Part shown: one piece after another, positions 26-29,379 of the stretch
Layout: each line of letters begins with the position of its first letter
Position numbering within the stretch: the first letter of the stretch is position 1
DNA from: a virus
Length of the DNA: 64,000 nucleotides
IMG/VR virus record: IMGVR_UViG_3300025096_002738
Coordinates: 1 to 64,000 of that record
Direction: 5' to 3' (one strand)
Made by a program: the position numbers and the translations under genes
Notes under the pieces: generated by a model
The model's database searches: none
The model's input: only the letters and a program-made list of their open reading frames with translations
What the model was told of the DNA's origin: nothing

Positions 26-250
26 ATGGCCCGAAACCTCGACACCGTACTCACCTGGGATCAAGCGGTCGCAGACTTCACAGACAATATCATGCCCTAT
101 GTGCGCGAGCAATATGAACAGGACGGCATCGCCGACTGGCCAGCCCGCCGGGAGACATGGAACAACTGGACCGATTCGCTCTGCAAGGACGGTCAGATTT
201 CTGACTGGCAGTATGAGAATTGGTCGCAGCCCCCCATTTGCGGGGCTTGA
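26..250 (+). CDS. Small acidic protein of unknown function
   Basis: 74 aa. I do not recognise a domain. It is Trp-rich and acidic, with a middle segment (WPARRETWNNWTDSL) and a DGQISDWQYENW stretch that looks like a compact helical fold. The ATG follows an AAGGAAAAA purine stretch. The stop TGA is embedded in the first TTGAC box of the promoter module that drives the next gene, the arrangement seen after four other genes here, which supports it as a real gene. Confidence 0.7.
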   Translation: MARNLDTVLTWDQAVADFTDNIMPYVREQYEQDGIADWPARRETWNNWTDSLCKDGQISDWQYENWSQPPICGA

Positions 251-301
251 CATTCTCTTGACAACTTCGTGCTTGACTTCTGCTCATGCATGTGGGATAA
301 T
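247..301 (+). promoter_or_regulatory. Triple-TTGAC promoter module A
   Basis: TTGAC boxes start at 247, 258 and 273 (spacings 11 and 15). The third is the -35 (TTGACT, 273-278), followed by a 17-bp spacer and a -10 GATAAT (296-301). The first box overlaps the stop codon of the upstream gene. The same layout recurs at 823, 1755, 3405 and 4991. Confidence 0.85.
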
Positions 302-328
302 ATAGCATATTCAAACGGGAGTACATTC

Positions 329-826
329 ATGAAAGTCCGCGCAGCCCTCAAGAAAGTCAAGAGCCATTTCAAGAAGCAGGGGATCAACATCCAGATCTGC
401 GCTCCTGCCCGGCATGGAGATTATAAGTGGTCCTTCGAGCACAACGGGTATGTTGGCTCCTTCTCGGTCAACGGCATGCACGGCTGGGACCCTGCTGCCC
501 TGGATGGCGAGGCTACGCTCTTTCACGTCCGCGCCGTTGGCGATATTAGCGATCCTTACACGGATTACCATGCTGGCTCGTTCCGTGACAACATCACGCA
601 GGTCTGCCGTAGCTTGCTGCCGAGCCCTCCAAAGTATCCGGCTGGAACCTTGGTGCGAGGTAAGGACACGAAGCGAGCAGTGCGCTGGGGCTTCGCCGCC
701 AAGGTGGGTCTCGTCATGAGCGCCGGCGATGGATACTGCAAGGTTGCCTGGACCGGCGATCGTCCCAATCAATGGGGTGATTGGCCTTCGGTCTCTGCCC
801 GCGATCTTGAGAACATCAGCAGTTGA
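329..826 (+). CDS. Hypothetical protein with C-terminal SH3-like 'GTLV' domain
   Basis: 165 aa from ATG 329, preceded by CGGGAG. An in-frame codon at 269 lies between the -35 and -10 of module A, so it cannot be the start on that transcript. The N-terminus is basic (KVRAALKKVKSHFKK). Residues about 100-165 (YPAGTLVRGKD...GLVMSAGDGYCKVAWTGD) follow the pattern of the small 'GDLV..G.V....V.W' proteins scattered over this window and are probably an SH3-like barrel. Function unknown. Its stop codon begins promoter module B. Confidence 0.7.
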   Translation: MKVRAALKKVKSHFKKQGINIQICAPARHGDYKWSFEHNGYVGSFSVNGMHGWDPAALDGEATLFHVRAVGDISDPYTDYHAGSFRDNITQVCRSLLPSPPKYPAGTLVRGKDTKRAVRWGFAAKVGLVMSAGDGYCKVAWTGDRPNQWGDWPSVSARDLENISS

Positions 827-877
827 CATTCACTTGACAATTTGCCACTTGACTCTCACTCGCACAGGTGGTATAAT
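823..877 (+). promoter_or_regulatory. Triple-TTGAC promoter module B
   Basis: TTGAC boxes at 823, 834 and 849 (spacings 11 and 15). The -35 is TTGACT at 849-854 and the -10 is a perfect TATAAT at 872-877, with a 17-bp spacer. It drives the zinc-knuckle gene at 916. Confidence 0.9.
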
Positions 878-915
878 GATGCATCAAGTAAGAAGAAGTA
901 AGGAGAAAAAAGTCC

Positions 916-1758
916 ATGTCATTTAACGGAACCGTCCGCTGCGGCTATTGCTACGTCACCGGCCACAATGCTCGTAAGTGCCCCGCTAAGATTGCCCGCG
1001 TCAAGGAAAGCTATGAGCAAGCCCTTCGTCGCCTCGACCATGCCGAAACGTCGTGGGACAAAGAATACTGGGCCGACCAGACCAGCAGGAGGCGCGAAGA
1101 GTACATCAGGTACACGAAGATCGATCTTGCCACCGGCAATAAGGTCACGAACAAGGCGGCCAAAGCGCTCCGCATGAAGAAGGTCCGGTGCAGCTATTGC
1201 TTAACCCGTGGACACACGCGGCGAGTCTGTCAGAACCTGAAGAACGACTACACGATCTTTAAGACCCGCACGGCGGCAGCACGCAGCCGGTGGCATGCCA
1301 CGCTTGTAGAAAAGCAAGCTGGCCGGGGATCACTGGTCATCACCGGATCGTGGGGCTATGACTCCGCCGGGGAGTGGGGGTTCAGAAAAACGTCTTCCCT
1401 ACTCTCAGGCTACAGCGTGAAGAATGTCCATGCCCACACTAACTTTCAGGCGTGTGTCTCCCTTGAGACCGTACCCCTGTCGGGATTTCAGGGCCGCGAG
1501 GTGTACCGCTCAGAAAATTGGATGGCACTCGCCGCAGTGACAACAGCCCCTGGCGAGTCCTCCTCTCACATCGCGTTCTCGCCGGCGGGAACTGTCCCGG
1601 CTCTGGAGGACATCCCTGGCATCGATGAGGTGCCCCCGCTCAAGCAAGTTTTCCCTACCGGGTGCCAGCGCTCCGGCCACTACGCCGACGGACGCTTTAG
1701 CGAGACCTTCGGTTCTGGGCTTCCAACCGATGCTTACAGTGCCCCCGCCGGTACTTGA
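916..1758 (+). CDS. Protein with two CCHC zinc knuckles
   Basis: 280 aa. It has two retroviral-type zinc knuckles, each CX2CX4HX4C: CGYCYVTGHNARKC near residues 9-22 and CSYCLTRGHTRRVC near residues 92-105, separated by a charged helical segment. Zinc knuckles of this type usually bind single-stranded RNA or DNA. The C-terminal 150 residues (from about ITGSWGYDSAG) are unrecognised and rich in Gly, Ser and Pro. The ATG has a strong Shine-Dalgarno (AAGGAGAAAAAA). It stands alone between promoter modules B and C. A role in RNA binding or host-transcript control is inference. Confidence 0.85.
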   Translation: MSFNGTVRCGYCYVTGHNARKCPAKIARVKESYEQALRRLDHAETSWDKEYWADQTSRRREEYIRYTKIDLATGNKVTNKAAKALRMKKVRCSYCLTRGHTRRVCQNLKNDYTIFKTRTAAARSRWHATLVEKQAGRGSLVITGSWGYDSAGEWGFRKTSSLLSGYSVKNVHAHTNFQACVSLETVPLSGFQGREVYRSENWMALAAVTTAPGESSSHIAFSPAGTVPALEDIPGIDEVPPLKQVFPTGCQRSGHYADGRFSETFGSGLPTDAYSAPAGT

Positions 1759-1809
1759 CATTCCCTTGACAATTTAGTTGTTGACTTTCCGCTCATCTTC
1801 ATCTATAAT
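1755..1809 (+). promoter_or_regulatory. Triple-TTGAC promoter module C
   Basis: TTGAC boxes at 1755, 1766 and 1781 (spacings 11 and 15). The -35 is TTGACT at 1781-1786 and the -10 TATAAT at 1804-1809, with a 17-bp spacer. It drives the AAA ATPase and the two small genes after it. Confidence 0.9.
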
Positions 1810-1857
1810 GTACTACATAAGATAGAGCAATACTTCCACTTCCCCTCGGAGAAAATC

Positions 1858-2940
1858 ATGGCTGTCGATTTCGCCACCTTCTTGTCCATCGCCCCGCTCA
1901 TCCTTGACAGCCGGCTGCCCGTGCTTATCCGCGGCGGACACGGCAAGGGCAAGTCTGAGATCGTCTACATGATCGCAGCCACTCGCGAGCTTCCTGTCGT
2001 CGAGCGCCGCGCGTCTCAGATGACTGAGGGCGATCTCTTGGGTCTCCCCGATACCGCTGAGACCAGCATCGCCGGCCGCAAGTCCACCACCTGGAACGCC
2101 CCAGATTGGCTTGTGACGGCTTGCGAGCAGCCGGTCCTGCTCTTCCTTGACGAAGTGGACCGCGCGACCGTAGAAGTCCGCCAAGGGCTCTTTGAGCTTA
2201 CGGATAGCCGGAAGATCAACGGCTGGCAGCTGCACCCTGACACCCTGATCATGGCTGCCGTCAACGGCGGCGAGCACGGTGCCCAGTACCAAGTGGGCGA
2301 AATGGACCCCGCGGAGCTTGATCGCTGGACCGTCTTCGATGTCGAGCCGACCGTGGAAGACTGGCTTGTCTGGGCTAAGGATAATGTTGACACGATTCTG
2401 TGGGACTTCATTAACCACAATCGGCAGCACTTGGAGCACGTTGGCGACTTCGAGCCTAACAAGGTCTACCCCTCCCGGCGTAGCTGGAAGCGCTTCAACG
2501 ACACTGTGGCGGCCGCAGGGGCCTATGAGCAGGATGCTGATCGCAACGTGCTCTTCCACCTTGCTACCGCGTTCGTTGGTTTTGAGGCCGCCGTCACCCT
2601 GAAGGACTTCGTTGAGAAGTACGAGTGGCAGGTCACGATTGAGGATATCCTGGACGCCGGCGATCTTTCCAAGGCTGCTAACTGGGGTATCAATGACCAC
2701 GCTGCCATGATCGAGAAGTTTCAGGCTGCTGAGACGTTCGGTGAGACCCTTACGCCGGCCCAGATTCACAATCTCGCTAACTACTTCGTCTCGATGCCCT
2801 CCGAGGTTGCGATGAAGCTGTGGACCGTTATCGGTGACACTGATAACATCGACAACGTGGTCGAGCTTCACAAGAGCACTGCGGCTAACGGCACGAAGGT
2901 CTCTGATCACCTCGTGGTTATCCTTGGCGGTGACATGTGA
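1858..2940 (+). CDS. MoxR-type AAA+ ATPase
   Basis: 360 aa. Walker A is GGHGKGKS (residues 26-33), Walker B LLFLDEVD (94-101), and a sensor-1 type AAVNGG lies at about 133-138. This architecture fits the MoxR group of AAA+ ATPases, which act as chaperones or remodellers together with VWA-domain proteins. The next large gene (3485) encodes exactly such a protein, with a metallopeptidase and a VWA-like domain, so the pair probably works together. It is preceded by a CGGAG ribosome site and promoter module C, and the next gene starts inside its stop (GTGA). Confidence 0.9.
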   Translation: MAVDFATFLSIAPLILDSRLPVLIRGGHGKGKSEIVYMIAATRELPVVERRASQMTEGDLLGLPDTAETSIAGRKSTTWNAPDWLVTACEQPVLLFLDEVDRATVEVRQGLFELTDSRKINGWQLHPDTLIMAAVNGGEHGAQYQVGEMDPAELDRWTVFDVEPTVEDWLVWAKDNVDTILWDFINHNRQHLEHVGDFEPNKVYPSRRSWKRFNDTVAAAGAYEQDADRNVLFHLATAFVGFEAAVTLKDFVEKYEWQVTIEDILDAGDLSKAANWGINDHAAMIEKFQAAETFGETLTPAQIHNLANYFVSMPSEVAMKLWTVIGDTDNIDNVVELHKSTAANGTKVSDHLVVILGGDM

Positions 2941-3149
2941 GCCGACGGTCCTTTGTCTCAAAGGTCAAGACCGGCGACGTGGTTCGCTGGCTTCAGAGCC
3001 ACTCAGACCCCACCGTCGGCATTGTGCTTAGCGTGCGAGAGGGTAGGACACCGACGGCCTACCCTCTTGTAGAGGTAAAGTGGACGTCTGGCGCTTATTG
3101 TCCTCCGCTCGTCATTGAGCCAGAGCTAGAGGTTATCAGTGCGGCGTAG
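2937..3149 (+). CDS. Small SH3-like 'GDVV' protein
   Basis: 70 aa, GTG start overlapping the ATPase stop by 4 nt (GTGA), so translation is coupled. The pattern KTGDVVRWLQ...VGIVLSVREG...LVEVKWTSG...LEVIS belongs to the dispersed small beta-rich family of this window. The fold is probably an SH3/KOW-like barrel. Function unknown. Confidence 0.7.
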   Translation: MSRRSFVSKVKTGDVVRWLQSHSDPTVGIVLSVREGRTPTAYPLVEVKWTSGAYCPPLVIEPELEVISAA

Positions 3150-3180
3150 AAGACGTTCGTTAAAATTGGAGAACGATCTG

Positions 3181-3408
3181 GTGGCCACGAGGGATGTTAG
3201 AGTAGGCGACCTGTTGGTAAGGTATAGCGATGGCACCCCTGCGGTTGTCCTGGAGGTTGCTAAAGATCTTGGCCGTCCTCACTTCCAGGTCCGCCCCAGC
3301 GAGGACGTCCCGCCCAGGAAACAATACCGCCTCTGGACGGAGGGCAGCGACGTCTGGATTAAGGAATTCTCTCTGAACGCCCAGTATTACCGGGCCTGCG
3401 ACCCTTGA
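3181..3408 (+). CDS. Small SH3-like 'GDLL' protein
   Basis: 75 aa from GTG 3181, chosen because GGAGA lies about 10 nt upstream. A longer in-frame GTG at 3139 would add a basic run (MRRRRRSLK) and overlap the upstream gene. The N-terminal half (VRVGDLLVRYSDGTPAVVLEVAK) matches the GDLV family. The C-terminal half is charged and unrecognised. Its stop forms part of promoter module D. Confidence 0.65.
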   Translation: MATRDVRVGDLLVRYSDGTPAVVLEVAKDLGRPHFQVRPSEDVPPRKQYRLWTEGSDVWIKEFSLNAQYYRACDP

Positions 3409-3460
3409 CATTCCCTTGACAATTTGGTTGTTGACAAGCCCCTTCCGCCTATGGTATACT
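3405..3460 (+). promoter_or_regulatory. Triple-TTGAC promoter module D
   Basis: TTGAC boxes at 3405, 3416 and 3431 (spacings 11 and 15). The -35 is TTGACA at 3431-3436 and the -10 TATACT at 3455-3460, with an 18-bp spacer. It drives the metallopeptidase/VWA gene. Confidence 0.88.
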
Positions 3461-3484
3461 ACGTATATAAGGATCGAGAACTAA

Positions 3485-4750
3485 ATGAGCACTTCTGATA
3501 ACAGTCCCCCGCCCTTTGACCTCAACATGCACGCAGCGCGTCTGCTGATGCGTGAGTCCTTCTTTGCCGCGCTCTCGCGCCGCATCGACAAGACTCCGAC
3601 CGATCAGATCCCGACGGCTGGCGTCCGCGTCAATCCTGCCACTGGCTGGTTTGAGCTTATGTACAATCCTGAGTTCATGGGCTCGCTCGACGATGAGCAC
3701 AAGCTGGGCGTGCTCATGCACGAATTCTACCACTGCGTTCTGGAGCACGTCACGGGCCGCAAGCCTGCGGATGGTCTCCAGCGCATTGATAACATCGCGA
3801 TGGACCTTGCGATTAACGGTCTCCCGGAGATGCGGAACAAGCTCCCGGATGAGAACAATCCCGGTCCCATGATGCCAAGCGGCGAGCCCATGAAGGCGGT
3901 TGTGCCCGGCCAGGGGCCGTTCGCAGAGCTTCCCGCTAACATGAGCTACGAGTGGTATCTGGAGGCGCTCAAGCGCATGGGCGAGGACCAGGAGGAAGGC
4001 GAGGGTCAAGGTCAACCCGGAGAGGGCGATGGCGATGGTCAGGCCGATCCCTTTGGCGGCGCTGACAGCTTTGATAGCCATGAGGGCTTCGGAGAGGCCC
4101 AGGGAGCCGTCTCCGAGATTGCCAAGGAGCGACTCCGGGATACCATCAAGAAAGCCGCCCAGGAGGCCGAGCAGGCCCGCAACTGGGGCTCTGTGTCCTC
4201 CTCCATGCGCCAGGACATCCTGGAGCGCATCCAGAGCCGAGTGGACTGGCGCAAGGTGCTGCGTTACTTTGTCAAGACTTCCCAGCGGGCCGAGGCCCGC
4301 TCTACTCCGCGGCGGATCAATCGTCGTTTCCCCCGTATCCACCCTGGCAAGCGCGTGCGGCGCCATGCGCGGATTGCGATCAGCATTGATCAGTCCGGTT
4401 CGGTTGATGATCGTATGCTCACCGCGTTCTTCTCGGAGCTTAACAAGCTTGCAGAGATTGCAGAGTTTACCGTCATTCCTTTCGACACTGAGGTTGCCGT
4501 GGACAAGGTCTACACCTGGAAGAAGGGATCGGCCCGGAAGACGGAGCGCGTTATGTGCGGCGGCACGGATTTTGATGCTCCGACCAAGTACGTCAATAAG
4601 GAGAACTTCGATGGACATATCATTCTAACTGATATGATGGCTCCTAAGCCCATTTCCAGCAAGTGTCAGCGCATGTGGATGACCACTCGCGCATGCATGC
4701 AGCGCCCATATTTCAGTACGAATGAGCGCGTTATCGCGATTGATGTATAG
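3485..4750 (+). CDS. Putative metallopeptidase with VWA-like domain (DUF2201-like)
   Basis: 421 aa. The N-terminal domain has a zincin motif HEFYH (residues 79-83) with another His at 88. A low-complexity acidic/Gly linker (about 168-205) follows. The C-terminal domain carries a VWA/MIDAS-type motif DQSGS (302-306) and a later GGTDFD. This two-domain layout is that of the putative metallopeptidase plus VWA-like proteins that accompany MoxR ATPases in bacteria. Together with the ATPase at 1858 it may form a remodelling or proteolytic complex; the substrate is unknown. It starts with ATG after promoter module D. Confidence 0.85.
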   Translation: MSTSDNSPPPFDLNMHAARLLMRESFFAALSRRIDKTPTDQIPTAGVRVNPATGWFELMYNPEFMGSLDDEHKLGVLMHEFYHCVLEHVTGRKPADGLQRIDNIAMDLAINGLPEMRNKLPDENNPGPMMPSGEPMKAVVPGQGPFAELPANMSYEWYLEALKRMGEDQEEGEGQGQPGEGDGDGQADPFGGADSFDSHEGFGEAQGAVSEIAKERLRDTIKKAAQEAEQARNWGSVSSSMRQDILERIQSRVDWRKVLRYFVKTSQRAEARSTPRRINRRFPRIHPGKRVRRHARIAISIDQSGSVDDRMLTAFFSELNKLAEIAEFTVIPFDTEVAVDKVYTWKKGSARKTERVMCGGTDFDAPTKYVNKENFDGHIILTDMMAPKPISSKCQRMWMTTRACMQRPYFSTNERVIAIDV

Positions 4751-5019
4751 TGCGCGGCGGCCGTCCATATGCTCGGGTCAAGACAGTCTTTAAGGCAGGC
4801 GATCTTGTCCAAGTAGTAGGCACTCACCAGGAAGACATGCCCAGCGCGAGAATAGGAATCATCACCGAGAAGGTTTTGAGTTTTCACCCGCATGAAGGAG
4901 GCTCCTTCTGGCTCGTGCTCTTCACGAACGGTATCACCATTCGGATCTGGGAAGGTCATCTAATGCATGTCGTCGGCACCACCTCCACTCTTGACACTCC
5001 CTTGACAAGTTCTACTTGA
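4750..5019 (+). CDS. Small SH3-like 'GDLV' protein
   Basis: 89 aa, GTG start overlapping the stop of the metallopeptidase gene by one base. The core FKAGDLVQVV...ARIGIITEK...FWLVLFTNG.....IWEGHLMHVV is the dispersed GDLV family. The reading frame continues through the first two TTGAC boxes of module E and stops inside the third. The last ten residues may therefore simply be read-through of promoter sequence. Confidence 0.6.
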   Translation: MRGGRPYARVKTVFKAGDLVQVVGTHQEDMPSARIGIITEKVLSFHPHEGGSFWLVLFTNGITIRIWEGHLMHVVGTTSTLDTPLTSST

Positions 5020-5044
5020 CTTTAGCCCCAGCCTCCTGTATAAT
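4991..5044 (+). promoter_or_regulatory. Triple-TTGAC promoter module E
   Basis: TTGAC boxes at 4991, 5002 and 5016 (spacings 11 and 14). The -35 is TTGACT at 5016-5021 and the -10 TATAAT at 5039-5044, with a 17-bp spacer. It drives the 5077 gene. Confidence 0.88.
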
Positions 5045-5076
5045 GTATCAGTACCGTCGAGAAAGGAACACATAAC

Positions 5077-5940
5077 ATGGCTCGCACTTCTTGGAAACTC
5101 GCCTTCCCCACTCTCCTCGCCCACAAGGGGCTGTCTTCGCGTGATCGCAAGGTCATCGAGGACATGAAGCGCGGCTATGGCCACAGGGGCGCCTCGTACA
5201 TGACTCCTGGCCGCCGGCGCTACTTTAAGCAGATCCAGGAGCGCTCTCAGGGCGCCCTGGAGGCCATGGCAGCGCGGGAGGCCTCTGGGCCCACGGAGTT
5301 GGATACACGGCTCTCACGGCTCGCTGAGCGCGTCACAGCCGGCTCTTGGGCCCATGGCTTCGTGGAGTCCCTCCAGGAGCAGGTAGCCTACCGCGGGCCG
5401 CGTCTCTCAGACGGTCAGATGCGGACCCTTGAGAAGATCGAGGCAGAACATTCTGACGAAGCCATGGAGCGCATCGCTGGCTTTGTGGAGCGTTGGAAGA
5501 ACGACACCGACAAGACGCGGACCAATTTTCACAGAGTGATCGACTACTATCGCGCCGAGGCCATGTACTGGCGTAAGACCGTCCACGCCGTCGATGATGC
5601 CGCGGCTGCCGGTAAAGAGTACATCCCGGACCTGGAGACCTGGAAGAGGGTAGTGCAGAATAAGTACGCTCAGAAGGTGATTGCAGGCTATGAGCAGCCT
5701 CCGCTCTACCCGGTGGGTTCGATGGTCTCCCAGCGTGCTGGGGGTTTCGTGCGAAATCCCTACCAGCGACCCTCTCGCTCTGCGGTTAAGCTTGTGCCGC
5801 TGATCATTATCAGCACTGACGAGACTATCGTGTCCGCCGCCAAGGGTAACAAGCGCTACAAGGTGCTGCCCGTCGGCAGTGCAACCACCACTGTTTGCGA
5901 AGAGCGCGACATCAAGCGCTACCGTCCGAGCAAGAAGTAA
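5077..5940 (+). CDS. Basic protein of unknown function
   Basis: 287 aa, not recognised. The first 190 residues are Arg/Lys-rich and predominantly helical, with repeated charged segments. From about residue 215 (YPVGSMVSQRAGG...KLVPLIIISTDE...YKVLPVG...CEERDIKRY) the sequence resembles the small SH3-like family found around it. It may therefore be a helical protein with a C-terminal barrel, possibly nucleic-acid binding (inference from charge). Ribosome site GAAAGGAACA. It starts a unit with the two genes that follow. Confidence 0.7.
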   Translation: MARTSWKLAFPTLLAHKGLSSRDRKVIEDMKRGYGHRGASYMTPGRRRYFKQIQERSQGALEAMAAREASGPTELDTRLSRLAERVTAGSWAHGFVESLQEQVAYRGPRLSDGQMRTLEKIEAEHSDEAMERIAGFVERWKNDTDKTRTNFHRVIDYYRAEAMYWRKTVHAVDDAAAAGKEYIPDLETWKRVVQNKYAQKVIAGYEQPPLYPVGSMVSQRAGGFVRNPYQRPSRSAVKLVPLIIISTDETIVSAAKGNKRYKVLPVGSATTTVCEERDIKRYRPSKK

Positions 5941-5979
5941 AACACACCCCCCGTATCTCATAAGGAGAGAAACAGCAGA

Positions 5980-6249
5980 ATGAACACGAACGATCAACCC
6001 ATCGAAACCCTTGTGCGCGAGCTTATTGAGAGCGTGAACAGGGCAGCCTACTCGGAGTCCGTGGAGGGCATGCGTGAAGGCCTTCGGGCTGCCGTAGAAG
6101 CCTTTGAGAGCGCCCGACGGGTGCATACCACGGCGGGACGCTGGGAAGCGCTCCAGGGGCGCGTGGAGACCCTCCACGAAGACCCTCCGTCAGCCACAGT
6201 CGACCCCTTCGACCCTTATACTTTCAATGGCCCGGAGAGCCGACGATGA
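5980..6249 (+). CDS. Small helical protein, unknown function
   Basis: 89 aa. Strong ribosome site AAGGAGAGAAA. It is mostly helical (LVRELIESVNRAAYSESVEGMREGLRAAVEAFESARR) and then Pro/Asp-rich. No family recognised. The stop overlaps the next start (ATGA). Confidence 0.6.
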   Translation: MNTNDQPIETLVRELIESVNRAAYSESVEGMREGLRAAVEAFESARRVHTTAGRWEALQGRVETLHEDPPSATVDPFDPYTFNGPESRR

Positions 6250-6551
6250 ATAGACAGAATAATAGGGAAGTCCTGCTTCAATGGATTCAAGGCAGAGCCC
6301 CGTGCCACAATCATCGAGGATCGTTGCGAGCCGATGCCTTCGGAGGATTATGGTCCTACAACCTGAAGATTGGTCAGCGCACCGATTCCCAACGGCTTGT
6401 GATTGCTGATTACACGGCTACAAGTGGGGAGTTTCGTTCTCAGACCACATCGACGCACGTTAATCTTGCTCGTCAGTATGCTGATGACGTGATGCACCCG
6501 CGCGTCTGGATGACGACACCCCTCTCAGTGGATCAAGAGATCCCGTTTTAG
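6246..6551 (+). CDS. Hypothetical protein
   Basis: 101 aa, start overlapping the upstream stop by 4 nt. The central LWSYNLKIGQR....RLVIADYTA..GEFRSQTTSTHVNLAR looks like a small beta sheet with one helix. No function recognised. Its stop TAG abuts the inverted GTCAA boxes of the next control region. Confidence 0.6.
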   Translation: MNRQNNREVLLQWIQGRAPCHNHRGSLRADAFGGLWSYNLKIGQRTDSQRLVIADYTATSGEFRSQTTSTHVNLARQYADDVMHPRVWMTTPLSVDQEIPF

Positions 6552-6610
6552 TCAAAAGGATGTCAAATCGGGGCACTTTGGCTTGACAAACCGCCCCAGA
6601 CGGTTACATT
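6551..6610 (+). promoter_or_regulatory. Promoter with two inverted TTGAC boxes upstream
   Basis: GTCAA (the reverse complement of TTGAC) occurs at 6551 and 6562, 11 nt apart, the same spacing as boxes 1 and 2 of modules A-E. A -35 TTGACA follows at 6583-6588, and TACATT at 6605-6610 is the likely -10 (16-bp spacer). This is the same element with its distal boxes turned round. Confidence 0.6.
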
Positions 6611-6636
6611 ACATAAGCGAAAAGGAGATAGATCGC

Positions 6637-6963
6637 ATGGCAAAGAAGTACGACAACTGGTATGTTAGCAAAGTGGACGTGACCCGGAGCAATGAGGGGC
6701 GCCTACAGGCGCTTGAACGCCCTCTAACACGTCCTGAAGGCTCCAAGAGCCTCACCGAGGGTAAGAGGCTGGCCCGCGTCTCTCTCGCCCGCATGAAGGC
6801 GATGGGGCTGGAGAACCTCGTCCTGTGCAAGCCGGATCACAAGCGGTATTCTCGCCTTCTGCGCGAGTCAAACAAGCGCAATAAGGCCAAGCGCATGACG
6901 AAGGCTGATATTGCTGCGATCATGGCTGACGGTGTAACTGAAGAGAAGAAGGGCGAGGTCTGA
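6637..6963 (+). CDS. Basic protein of unknown function
   Basis: 108 aa from ATG 6637, which has AAAAGGAGA at the right distance. An earlier in-frame codon (6583) lies inside the -35 and was not used. It is Lys/Arg-rich throughout, with a helical C-terminus (KRMTKADIAAIMADG). A nucleic-acid-binding role is possible from charge alone. No family recognised. Confidence 0.65.
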   Translation: MAKKYDNWYVSKVDVTRSNEGRLQALERPLTRPEGSKSLTEGKRLARVSLARMKAMGLENLVLCKPDHKRYSRLLRESNKRNKAKRMTKADIAAIMADGVTEEKKGEV

Positions 6964-28965: not shown

Positions 28966-29302
28966 GGGGACGAAATGGCTTCGACAGGGTAAGAAAGAGG
29001 CATAGTGCAAGTAGGTTAGATACGACCTTAACAGTTCAAAACAATAGTTGCAAATAACAACAATCACTTCGATTCTGTTCGCCTAGCGGCTTAATCGGGA
29101 GGTTGCTCAGAGCCTTCTATCCAATTTGAGCAAAACAACAGACAAGTTGTAAAAATCAAAACCATCTATTGCAACAGGACGGTAAGCAATAGATTATAAC
29201 CGTCTACCTTTGTCAGTTTGGACGGTATAAACTGAATAAACTTGTGAATGACTAGAATTAGACTTATTTTGGACGACGGTTCGATTCCGTCCGTCTCTAC
29301 CA
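28966..29302 (+). ncRNA. ssrA: tmRNA (transfer-messenger RNA)
   Basis: The 5' end GGGGACGAAATGGCTTCGAC and 3' end CGTCTCT-ACCA pair as a 7-bp acceptor stem with two G-U pairs; GGTTCGATTCC is the T-loop, and CCA is encoded. The tag reading frame runs from GCA 29050 to TAA 29092-29094 and gives ANNNHFDSVRLAA, ending in the LAA signal for ClpXP-type proteases. Length 337 nt, normal for one-piece tmRNA. It would rescue stalled ribosomes and mark nascent proteins for degradation. Confidence 0.95.
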
Positions 29303-29304
29303 TT

Positions 29305-29379
29305 GCGGGTGTAGCTCAGCGGTAGAGCCTCACGTTGCCAACGTGACTGTCGCTGGTTCAAATCCAGTCACCCGCTCCA
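29305..29379 (+). tRNA. tRNA-Gly (GCC)
   Basis: Acceptor GCGGGTG/CACCCGC, D-stem GCTC/GAGC, anticodon stem TCACG/CGTGA with loop TTGCCAA (anticodon GCC), T-loop GGTTCAAATCC, encoded CCA at 29377-29379. It starts 2 nt after the tmRNA, so both probably come from one transcript. Confidence 0.95.

What the first reader, a model, noticed from the sequence alone, without database searches (positions are those of the whole stretch)
247..5044. Five copies of a triple-TTGAC promoter module
At 247, 823, 1755, 3405 and 4991, three TTGAC boxes stand at fixed spacing (11 then 15 nt, once 14). The last is the -35 of a near-perfect promoter (spacer 17, once 18). The 11-nt step is about one helical turn, so boxes 1 and 2 face the same side. 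In the first four modules box 1 overlaps the upstream stop codon. This is not a normal sigma70 promoter: the extra boxes may be regulator sites, polymerase-recruiting decoy -35s or overlapping promoters.
Basis: seen in the sequence. Interest (0 to 1): 0.78.

Follow-up and report, generated by a model that had tools for sequence, protein, structure and literature searches.

The report
Swappable regulator sites on phage promoters
A widespread group of ocean viruses of bacteria places the same two-part protein-docking site in front of many of its gene switches, and close relatives have replaced that site with a different one at a similarly fixed place, which points to an undiscovered control protein.

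Summary
In detail: five modules, TTGAC-N6-TTGAC-N9/10-TTGAC plus a -10, at 247, 823, 1755, 3405 and 4991. They are not peculiar to this window. In loci from 80 viral relatives, TTGAC-N6-TTGAC occurs 317 times on the coding strand and 5 times on the other; the 11-bp step is rigid. In complete-size relatives (185-205 kb, far-T4-like marine myoviruses) nearly all modules lie in one block of about 7-20 kb. Box 3 is an ordinary -35. Boxes 1 and 2 are more conserved than that -35, have no -10 of their own, and occupy about -61 to -46. In related phages they are replaced by GTGACA-N4-GTGACA or by a GGACA-N5-TGTCC palindrome, mostly at fixed distances within each phage, while the -35 mostly stays TTGAC-like. 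So boxes 1-2 look like a protein-binding site, not decoy -35s or overlapping promoters. Direct repeats of 7+4 bp are the geometry of OmpR/PhoB-family sites; I infer a head-to-tail dimer, more likely an activator than a repressor. No regulator was identified, and activation is inferred, not shown. In 136 of 286 modules the TGA of box 1 also ends an upstream open frame.

The parts
247..251 (+). module 1, box 1 (TTGAC; TGA 248-250 is the stop of ORF 26-250)
   Evidence: sequence
258..262 (+). module 1, box 2
273..278 (+). module 1, box 3 = -35 (TTGACT)
296..301 (+). module 1, -10 (GATAAT)
329..826 (+). gene behind module 1, 165 aa, no family
823..827 (+). module 2, box 1 (TGA 824-826 is the stop of 329-826)
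834..838 (+). module 2, box 2
849..854 (+). module 2, box 3 = -35 (TTGACT)
872..877 (+). module 2, -10 (TATAAT)
916..1758 (+). gene behind module 2, 280 aa, zinc-knuckle-like motifs (only a weak Pfam match)
1755..1759 (+). module 3, box 1 (TGA 1756-1758 is the stop of 916-1758)
1766..1770 (+). module 3, box 2
1781..1786 (+). module 3, box 3 = -35 (TTGACT)
1804..1809 (+). module 3, -10 (TATAAT)
1858..2940 (+). gene behind module 3, MoxR-like AAA ATPase (AAA_5); anchor used to fetch relatives
3405..3409 (+). module 4, box 1 (TGA 3406-3408 is the stop of ORF 3139-3408)
3416..3420 (+). module 4, box 2
3431..3436 (+). module 4, box 3 = -35 (TTGACA)
3455..3460 (+). module 4, -10 (TATACT), spacer 18
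3485..4750 (+). gene behind module 4, DUF2201 metallopeptidase/VWA protein
4991..4995 (+). module 5, box 1
5002..5006 (+). module 5, box 2
5016..5021 (+). module 5, box 3 = -35 (TTGACT), 14 after box 2; TGA 5017-5019 closes the frame of ORF 4750-5019
5039..5044 (+). module 5, -10 (TATAAT)
5077..5940 (+). gene behind module 5, 287 aa, no family

Best explanation
Each module is a host-sigma70-type promoter (box 3 = -35, then a -10) with one bipartite protein-binding site, CTTGACA-N4-CTTGACA, at about -61 to -46 (assuming the start lies 7 bases after the -10). A regulator that binds as a head-to-tail dimer, each half on one 7-bp box and both on one face of the helix, sits just upstream of the -35 and contacts the RNA polymerase; it most likely activates, so that one factor switches on a row of short transcription units in one genome block together. 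Some relatives have exchanged the site for GTGACA-N4-GTGACA or GGACA-N5-TGTCC, so the factor or its specificity has been replaced repeatedly. Shown: the anatomy, its conservation, its strand and spacing, its clustering and its replacement. Inferred: that a protein binds, that it is a head-to-tail dimer, that it activates, and that these are early genes. Unknown: whether the protein is phage- or host-encoded.
For: Spacing: TTGACA pairs at step 11: 286 on the coding strand, 3 on the other; step 10: 0; step 12: 16. The -10 lies 49+-1 from box 1 in 226 of 244 distinct modules with a strong -10. Leave-one-out conservation: box 1 at least 4 of 5 letters in 198 of 200, box 2 in 179 of 180, box 3 (the -35) in 171 of 233: the upstream boxes are held more strictly than the -35, as expected when an activator helps the polymerase. 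No -10 serves boxes 1 or 2. GT-type promoters: element to -35 exactly 25 and to -10 exactly 48 in 10 of 10; L040: palindrome start to -35 exactly 34 in 8 of 8, centre near -62; L060: palindrome centred near -41 with a poor -35, the place of a class II activator, but only two promoters. Clustering in one block per genome. In the AAA tree GT arose at least twice and GG at least twice on well-supported branches. A 7-bp unit with a 4-bp spacer is the tandem-dimer geometry of OmpR/PhoB-family sites (PMC4832192 and PMC4415409).
Against: No regulator gene was found: no OmpR/PhoB DNA-binding domain over the family cut-off in 18 phage records, and the only HTH seen recurrently, a small zinc plus sigma4-like protein, is present in genomes with and without the module. 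The -35 and -10 are close to consensus in many modules, which an activator-dependent promoter does not need. In L228 the palindrome stands at two main distances from the -35, 7 bp apart, not a whole helical turn, which fits activation poorly. No expression data exist. Host unknown.
Confidence: 0.55

Rival explanations
1. Boxes 1-2 are operators of a phage-encoded repressor, used for timed shut-off of these genes or for superinfection exclusion; the exchange of sites among relatives is heteroimmunity.
For: Repeated change of site with the promoter kept resembles heteroimmune operator families such as cluster A mycobacteriophage stoperators; near-consensus promoters need no activator; P2 C is a phage repressor that binds direct repeats; in L228 and L060 the element abuts or overlaps the -35.
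Against: In TT, GT and L040 types the site lies wholly upstream of the -35 and nowhere over the start; the -35 is less conserved than the boxes; no repressor and no lysogeny gene among the domain matches listed (two of those lists are cut at 25 families).
Confidence: 0.25
2. The boxes are read by the RNA polymerase itself, as an UP-element-like contact for alpha-CTD or an extra sigma contact; the one-turn step mirrors the two alpha-CTD subsites.
For: Position -61 to -46 and one-turn step; several relatives without the boxes have A-rich tracts just upstream of the -35.
Against: The boxes are sequence-specific and G/C-containing, unlike A-tract UP elements; the exact letters (TTGACA, GTGACA, GGACA/TGTCC) and strand matter and change between close relatives.
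Confidence: 0.1
3. Boxes 1-2 are decoy -35s or the -35s of overlapping promoters.
For: Same pentamer as the -35.
Against: 0 of 299 modules have a -10 for box 1 or 2; GT and GG relatives abandon the -35 letters upstream while mostly keeping them in box 3.
Confidence: 0.03

Closest known systems
PHO box and other OmpR/PhoB-family response-regulator sites
   Same: Two direct repeats of 7 conserved + 4 less conserved bp, 11-bp step, strict spacing, next to or over the -35. Read on the opposite strand the site is TGTCA-N6-TGTCA; the E. coli unit CTGTCAT has the same TGTCA core.
   Different: Orientation to the promoter appears reversed compared with the E. coli unit (own knowledge of PHO box orientation); GG relatives use a palindrome, GT relatives a 10-bp step; no such protein found in the phage genomes; the site serves a whole phage gene block, not phosphate genes.
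lambda CII sites (TTGC-N6-TTGC, own knowledge)
   Same: Phage promoters with two short direct repeats about one turn apart, bound by a protein that activates with sigma70 polymerase.
   Different: CII repeats flank a poor -35 with a 10-bp step; here both repeats lie upstream of a recognisable -35. A CII-like gene was not specifically searched for.
T4 middle promoters (MotA box, sigma appropriation; PMC2988021, PMC6755090 listed)
   Same: A T4-related phage uses the host polymerase and a short sequence near the -35 in a promoter class of its own.
   Different: The MotA box replaces the -35 near -30 and is single (own knowledge); here the -35 stays and the site is double and upstream.
Cluster A mycobacteriophage stoperators (PMC6550527)
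   Same: Many copies per genome in one orientation to transcription; site sequence differs among related phages; CTTGACA-like core (TGTCAAG, own knowledge).
   Different: Single asymmetric sites, mostly not at promoters, bound by an immunity repressor of temperate phages; here double sites tied to promoters in phages with no lysogeny gene seen.

Membership tests
sigma70-type promoter (box 3 and -10) | -35 TTGACA-like and -10 TATAAT-like with spacer 16-18 | tested here: met
   in 249 modules the -35 matches at least 4 of 6 in 230 and the -10 at least 5 of 6 in 229
overlapping promoters from boxes 1 and 2 | a -10 at 16-18 bp from box 1 or box 2 | tested here: not met
   0 of 299
OmpR/PhoB-family site (PHO-box-like) | two 7-bp direct repeats with a 4-bp spacer, strict 11-bp step | tested here: met
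   step 11 = 286, step 10 = 0, step 12 = 16; reference geometry
OmpR/PhoB-family site (PHO-box-like) | bound by an OmpR/PhoB-family protein | not testable with these tools
   host unknown; domain PF00486 absent from 18 phage records at the family cut-off, so if it is one, it is probably a host protein
OmpR/PhoB-family site (PHO-box-like) | repeat orientation to the promoter as in E. coli PHO boxes | tested here: not met
   TGTCA lies on the non-coding strand of the promoter; the E. coli orientation is from own knowledge
lambda CII site | TTGC-N6-TTGC straddling the -35 | tested here: not met
   both repeats lie upstream of the -35, step 11
UP element | A/T-tract at -40 to -60 | tested here: not met
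   TTGAC boxes with fixed G and C; A-rich tracts occur instead in some other lineages
T4 MotA-dependent middle promoter | MotA box at -30 in place of a -35 | tested here: not met
   a -35 is present in all five modules
T4 MotA-dependent middle promoter | motA and asiA genes in the phage | not tested
   these genes were not searched for by name
cluster A stoperator | single asymmetric sites, mostly outside promoters | tested here: not met
   sites are paired and tied to promoters
cluster A stoperator | an immunity repressor gene | tested here: inconclusive
   none seen in the domains scanned, but small divergent phage repressors can be missed

The most novel reading that the evidence does not exclude
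A lytic-looking, far-T4-like phage family controls a whole gene block through one exchangeable factor-site pair: the promoters are kept while the upstream site (TTGACA x2, GTGACA x2, GGACA/TGTCC) and its unknown, phage-encoded partner of a new DNA-binding type are swapped between lineages, perhaps under pressure from co-infecting relatives.
Probability: 0.3. Interest if true: 0.8.

Novelty: new variant of a known kind. Interest (0 to 1): 0.62.

Why it matters
Far-T4 phages are abundant but uncultivated, and a survey of them reports that T4 genes of transcription control were not detected (PMC4360716). This gives the first cis-regulatory code I know of for such a group: a promoter class recognisable by sequence alone in dozens of marine genomes, with natural site replacements that work like mutants and show which bases matter. 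It predicts a regulator that can be fished out with a short DNA, and it offers a clean case of how a phage changes the specificity of many sites at once.

Tried and rejected
Decoy -35s and overlapping promoters (no -10). UP element (letters do not fit). The sigma4-like zinc protein as the binder: in genomes of both kinds with much the same helix. A small winged-helix protein upstream of the AAA gene: present in some TT, GT, GG and module-free phages but missing from many TT phages. Gene-content comparison of six TT genomes with four module-free and two GT genomes gave no gene that looks DNA-binding and follows the site type; weak Pfam searches of ten such genes gave nothing useful. PF00486 and HTH_3 searches. 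Host search through GTDB: the one hit, a WOR-3 MAG chromosome, carries phage-like sequence next to a run of N, so it says nothing about the host. The GT pattern in IMG/VR hits almost only contigs without the family proteins, hence not informative. No nearby isolate: no near DNA match in phage records and at best about 32% identity of the AAA protein. A new GG set from L060 relatives: none in the nine newly fetched records checked. Literature searches found no report of this promoter type in the open library.

Full report
WHAT IS THERE. The five triple-box modules exist exactly as described. The longer consensus of the five is CTTGACATTCnCTTGACAAnTT, 4-5 variable bases, nTTGAC as -35, a spacer of 17 (once 18) and TATAAT. 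In the 81-kb virus record that holds the window there is no further promoter-linked copy; one lone pair lies on the minus strand at 6551-6566. The first four box-1 TGAs are stop codons of the upstream ORFs; in module 5 the frame of ORF 4750-5019 ends in box 3.

WHOSE DNA. The AAA gene behind module 3 (1858-2940) has 221 relatives among IMG/VR contigs; several of the best lie on contigs of 185-205 kb. One of them, G001 (195 kb), encodes a Gp23 capsid protein, T4-type portal, gp32, T4 baseplate and tail-tube proteins, DNA polymerase A, DnaB, class II ribonucleotide reductase and a GroEL-like chaperonin: a distant T4-like myovirus. I found no close isolate and no host.

CONSERVATION. In the 80 loci plus the window TTGAC-N6-TTGAC occurs 317 times on the coding strand and 5 times on the other. 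After removal of exact duplicates 283 modules in 55 loci remain; of 244 with a strong -10, 226 have it 48-50 bases from box 1. In TT-type loci the TTGACA-TTGACA step is 11 in 286 cases, 10 in none and 12 in 16; on the other strand 3 cases at 11. Conditioning on two perfect boxes and a -10 and looking at the third, box 1 has at least 4 of 5 letters in 198 of 200, box 2 in 179 of 180, box 3 in 171 of 233. These are not independent observations, since the phages are related, but the difference between boxes is within the same sequences. In large records the modules sit on one strand in one block: over about 7-13 kb in the clearest cases; a looser scan finds 15-23 per genome over up to about 20 kb, with one stray copy each in two of four genomes. 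A stricter DNA pattern hits 56 stretches of IMG/VR; most of them also encode a family protein, including relatives whose AAA protein is only about 50% identical.

REPLACEMENT IN RELATIVES. Other members of the family have different elements. GT type (L005, L055, and less strictly L194): GTGACA-N4-GTGACA; in L005 and L055 the second box stands 15 bp before the -35, as in TT, with 25 and 48 bp from the first box to -35 and -10 in 10 of 10. GG type: GGACA-N5-TGTCC; in L040 8 of 8 stand 34 bp before the -35, centre near -62; in L228 the palindrome mostly abuts the -35 (15 bp) or stands about 22 bp before it; in L060 (two promoters) it is centred near -41 where the -35 should be. A further group has A-rich tracts just upstream of the -35 or nothing I could recognise. 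Of 121 loci, 53 are TT, 3 GT, 5 GG (three of these on few sites), 60 other. On a quick AAA tree GT needs two changes and GG five, of which two each are forced by well-supported branches; one GT pair lies inside the main TT clade, the other next to two TT phages. The tree is of one gene, and recombination of the block is not excluded.

WHAT IT MEANS. Box 3 is the -35: it keeps a -35-like sequence when the upstream boxes become something else. Boxes 1 and 2 are therefore a separate element. They cannot be -35s of other promoters (0 of 299 with a -10) and do not look like an UP element. A rigid one-turn direct repeat with a strand preference calls for a protein whose two halves stack head to tail; 7+4 bp is the unit of OmpR/PhoB-family sites, whose strict 4-bp spacer has a structural reason (PMC4832192; PMC4415409). 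The place (-61 to -46), the fixed phase and the weaker hold on the -35 favour an activator. L040 (near -62) and L060 (near -41, poor -35) lie where class I and class II activators sit in E. coli promoters (own knowledge). The two distances in L228 and the near-consensus -35 and -10 are the main points against, and a repressor stays possible.

THE MISSING PARTNER. I looked for a phage gene that follows the site type. No OmpR/PhoB DNA-binding domain was found over the cut-off. HTH_3 picked up weakly only what is, in the genomes compared, a small zinc plus sigma4-like protein, which occurs with and without the module; at two of the chief -35-contact positions of sigma70 (R584, E585, own knowledge) it has other residues. 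A winged-helix-like protein near the AAA gene is too patchy. Gene-content comparison of twelve genomes gave no clear candidate; several of the genomes are incomplete. The partner may be a host protein, but then close phage relatives with different sites would need different hosts or host factors. A phage protein of an unrecognised fold is at least as likely.

GENE PACKING. In 136 of 286 modules the TGA inside box 1 ends an upstream frame of at least 50 codons. One string of DNA thus serves as stop codon and half-site, which helps to explain why TTGAC boxes are tolerated in so dense a block.

LIMITS. No transcription start was mapped; positions relative to the start assume 7 bases after the -10. 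The genes' timing is inferred only from their clustering. The label 'other' includes elements I did not recognise. The literature search covers open-access papers only.

Noticed in passing
window 9955-10040; similar in L016 15540, L014 10339, L010 10822, L055 16185, L075 16910: Conserved non-coding element ACCCCCCTCCCCCCTACCCGGAATGTATGTC, often followed by GGCTAAGTAC, just behind the module block, in 24 of 121 loci by a strict pattern and in TT, GT and module-free types. The opposite strand carries G6 runs (possible G-quadruplex); RNA folding is no better than shuffles (z -0.78).
   Followed up: partly
L008 6223-6860; L014 10275-10330; L010 10772-10815: Arrays of TTTGACA/TGTCAAA half-sites next to that C-rich element, not tied to clear promoters; possible further binding region or iterons of the same factor.
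   Followed up: partly
window 28966-29379: A phage-encoded tmRNA (tag ANNNNHFDSVRLAA) followed by tRNA-Gly; Rfam also gives a match to permuted tmRNA.
   Followed up: no
G001:141593-141853 and relatives (L233-L250): 80-110 aa protein with a Cys-rich (probably zinc) N-terminus and the HTH half of sigma region 4, conserved across the family; possibly a late-transcription factor.
   Followed up: partly
window 2937-3149, 7991-8281 and many ORFs in L040, L055, L060, L228: Many small ORFs with a shared MKVGDLV(R/K)-like start, several per genome block, no Pfam match where tested.
   Followed up: no
L194 4212-4802, L055 14332-15009, L060 9523-9864: A winged-helix-like domain (LTxDEW...DMLVLAGL...LTxxG), in some fused to a VGSLVRH domain, patchily present near the AAA gene.
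   Followed up: partly
L310 (CP070664.1, WOR-3 MAG chromosome), about 4600-6750: Phage modules and a phage-like protein next to a run of N inside a bacterial MAG chromosome: probably a chimeric assembly.
   Followed up: partly
L055, L040, G001, G021: Several otherwise different proteins start with a common motif of the kind M(K)LLLENWRRFLNEE or ITKxQLRxIIxEE.
   Followed up: no
L046 (IMGVR_UViG_3300020185_000228): A TT subtype with CTTGACAGAAC as second box and a shorter gap to the -35, with several nearly identical cores of the form TTGACTTTCNCTCTCGCATATGAGATAATGTATACAT.
   Followed up: no
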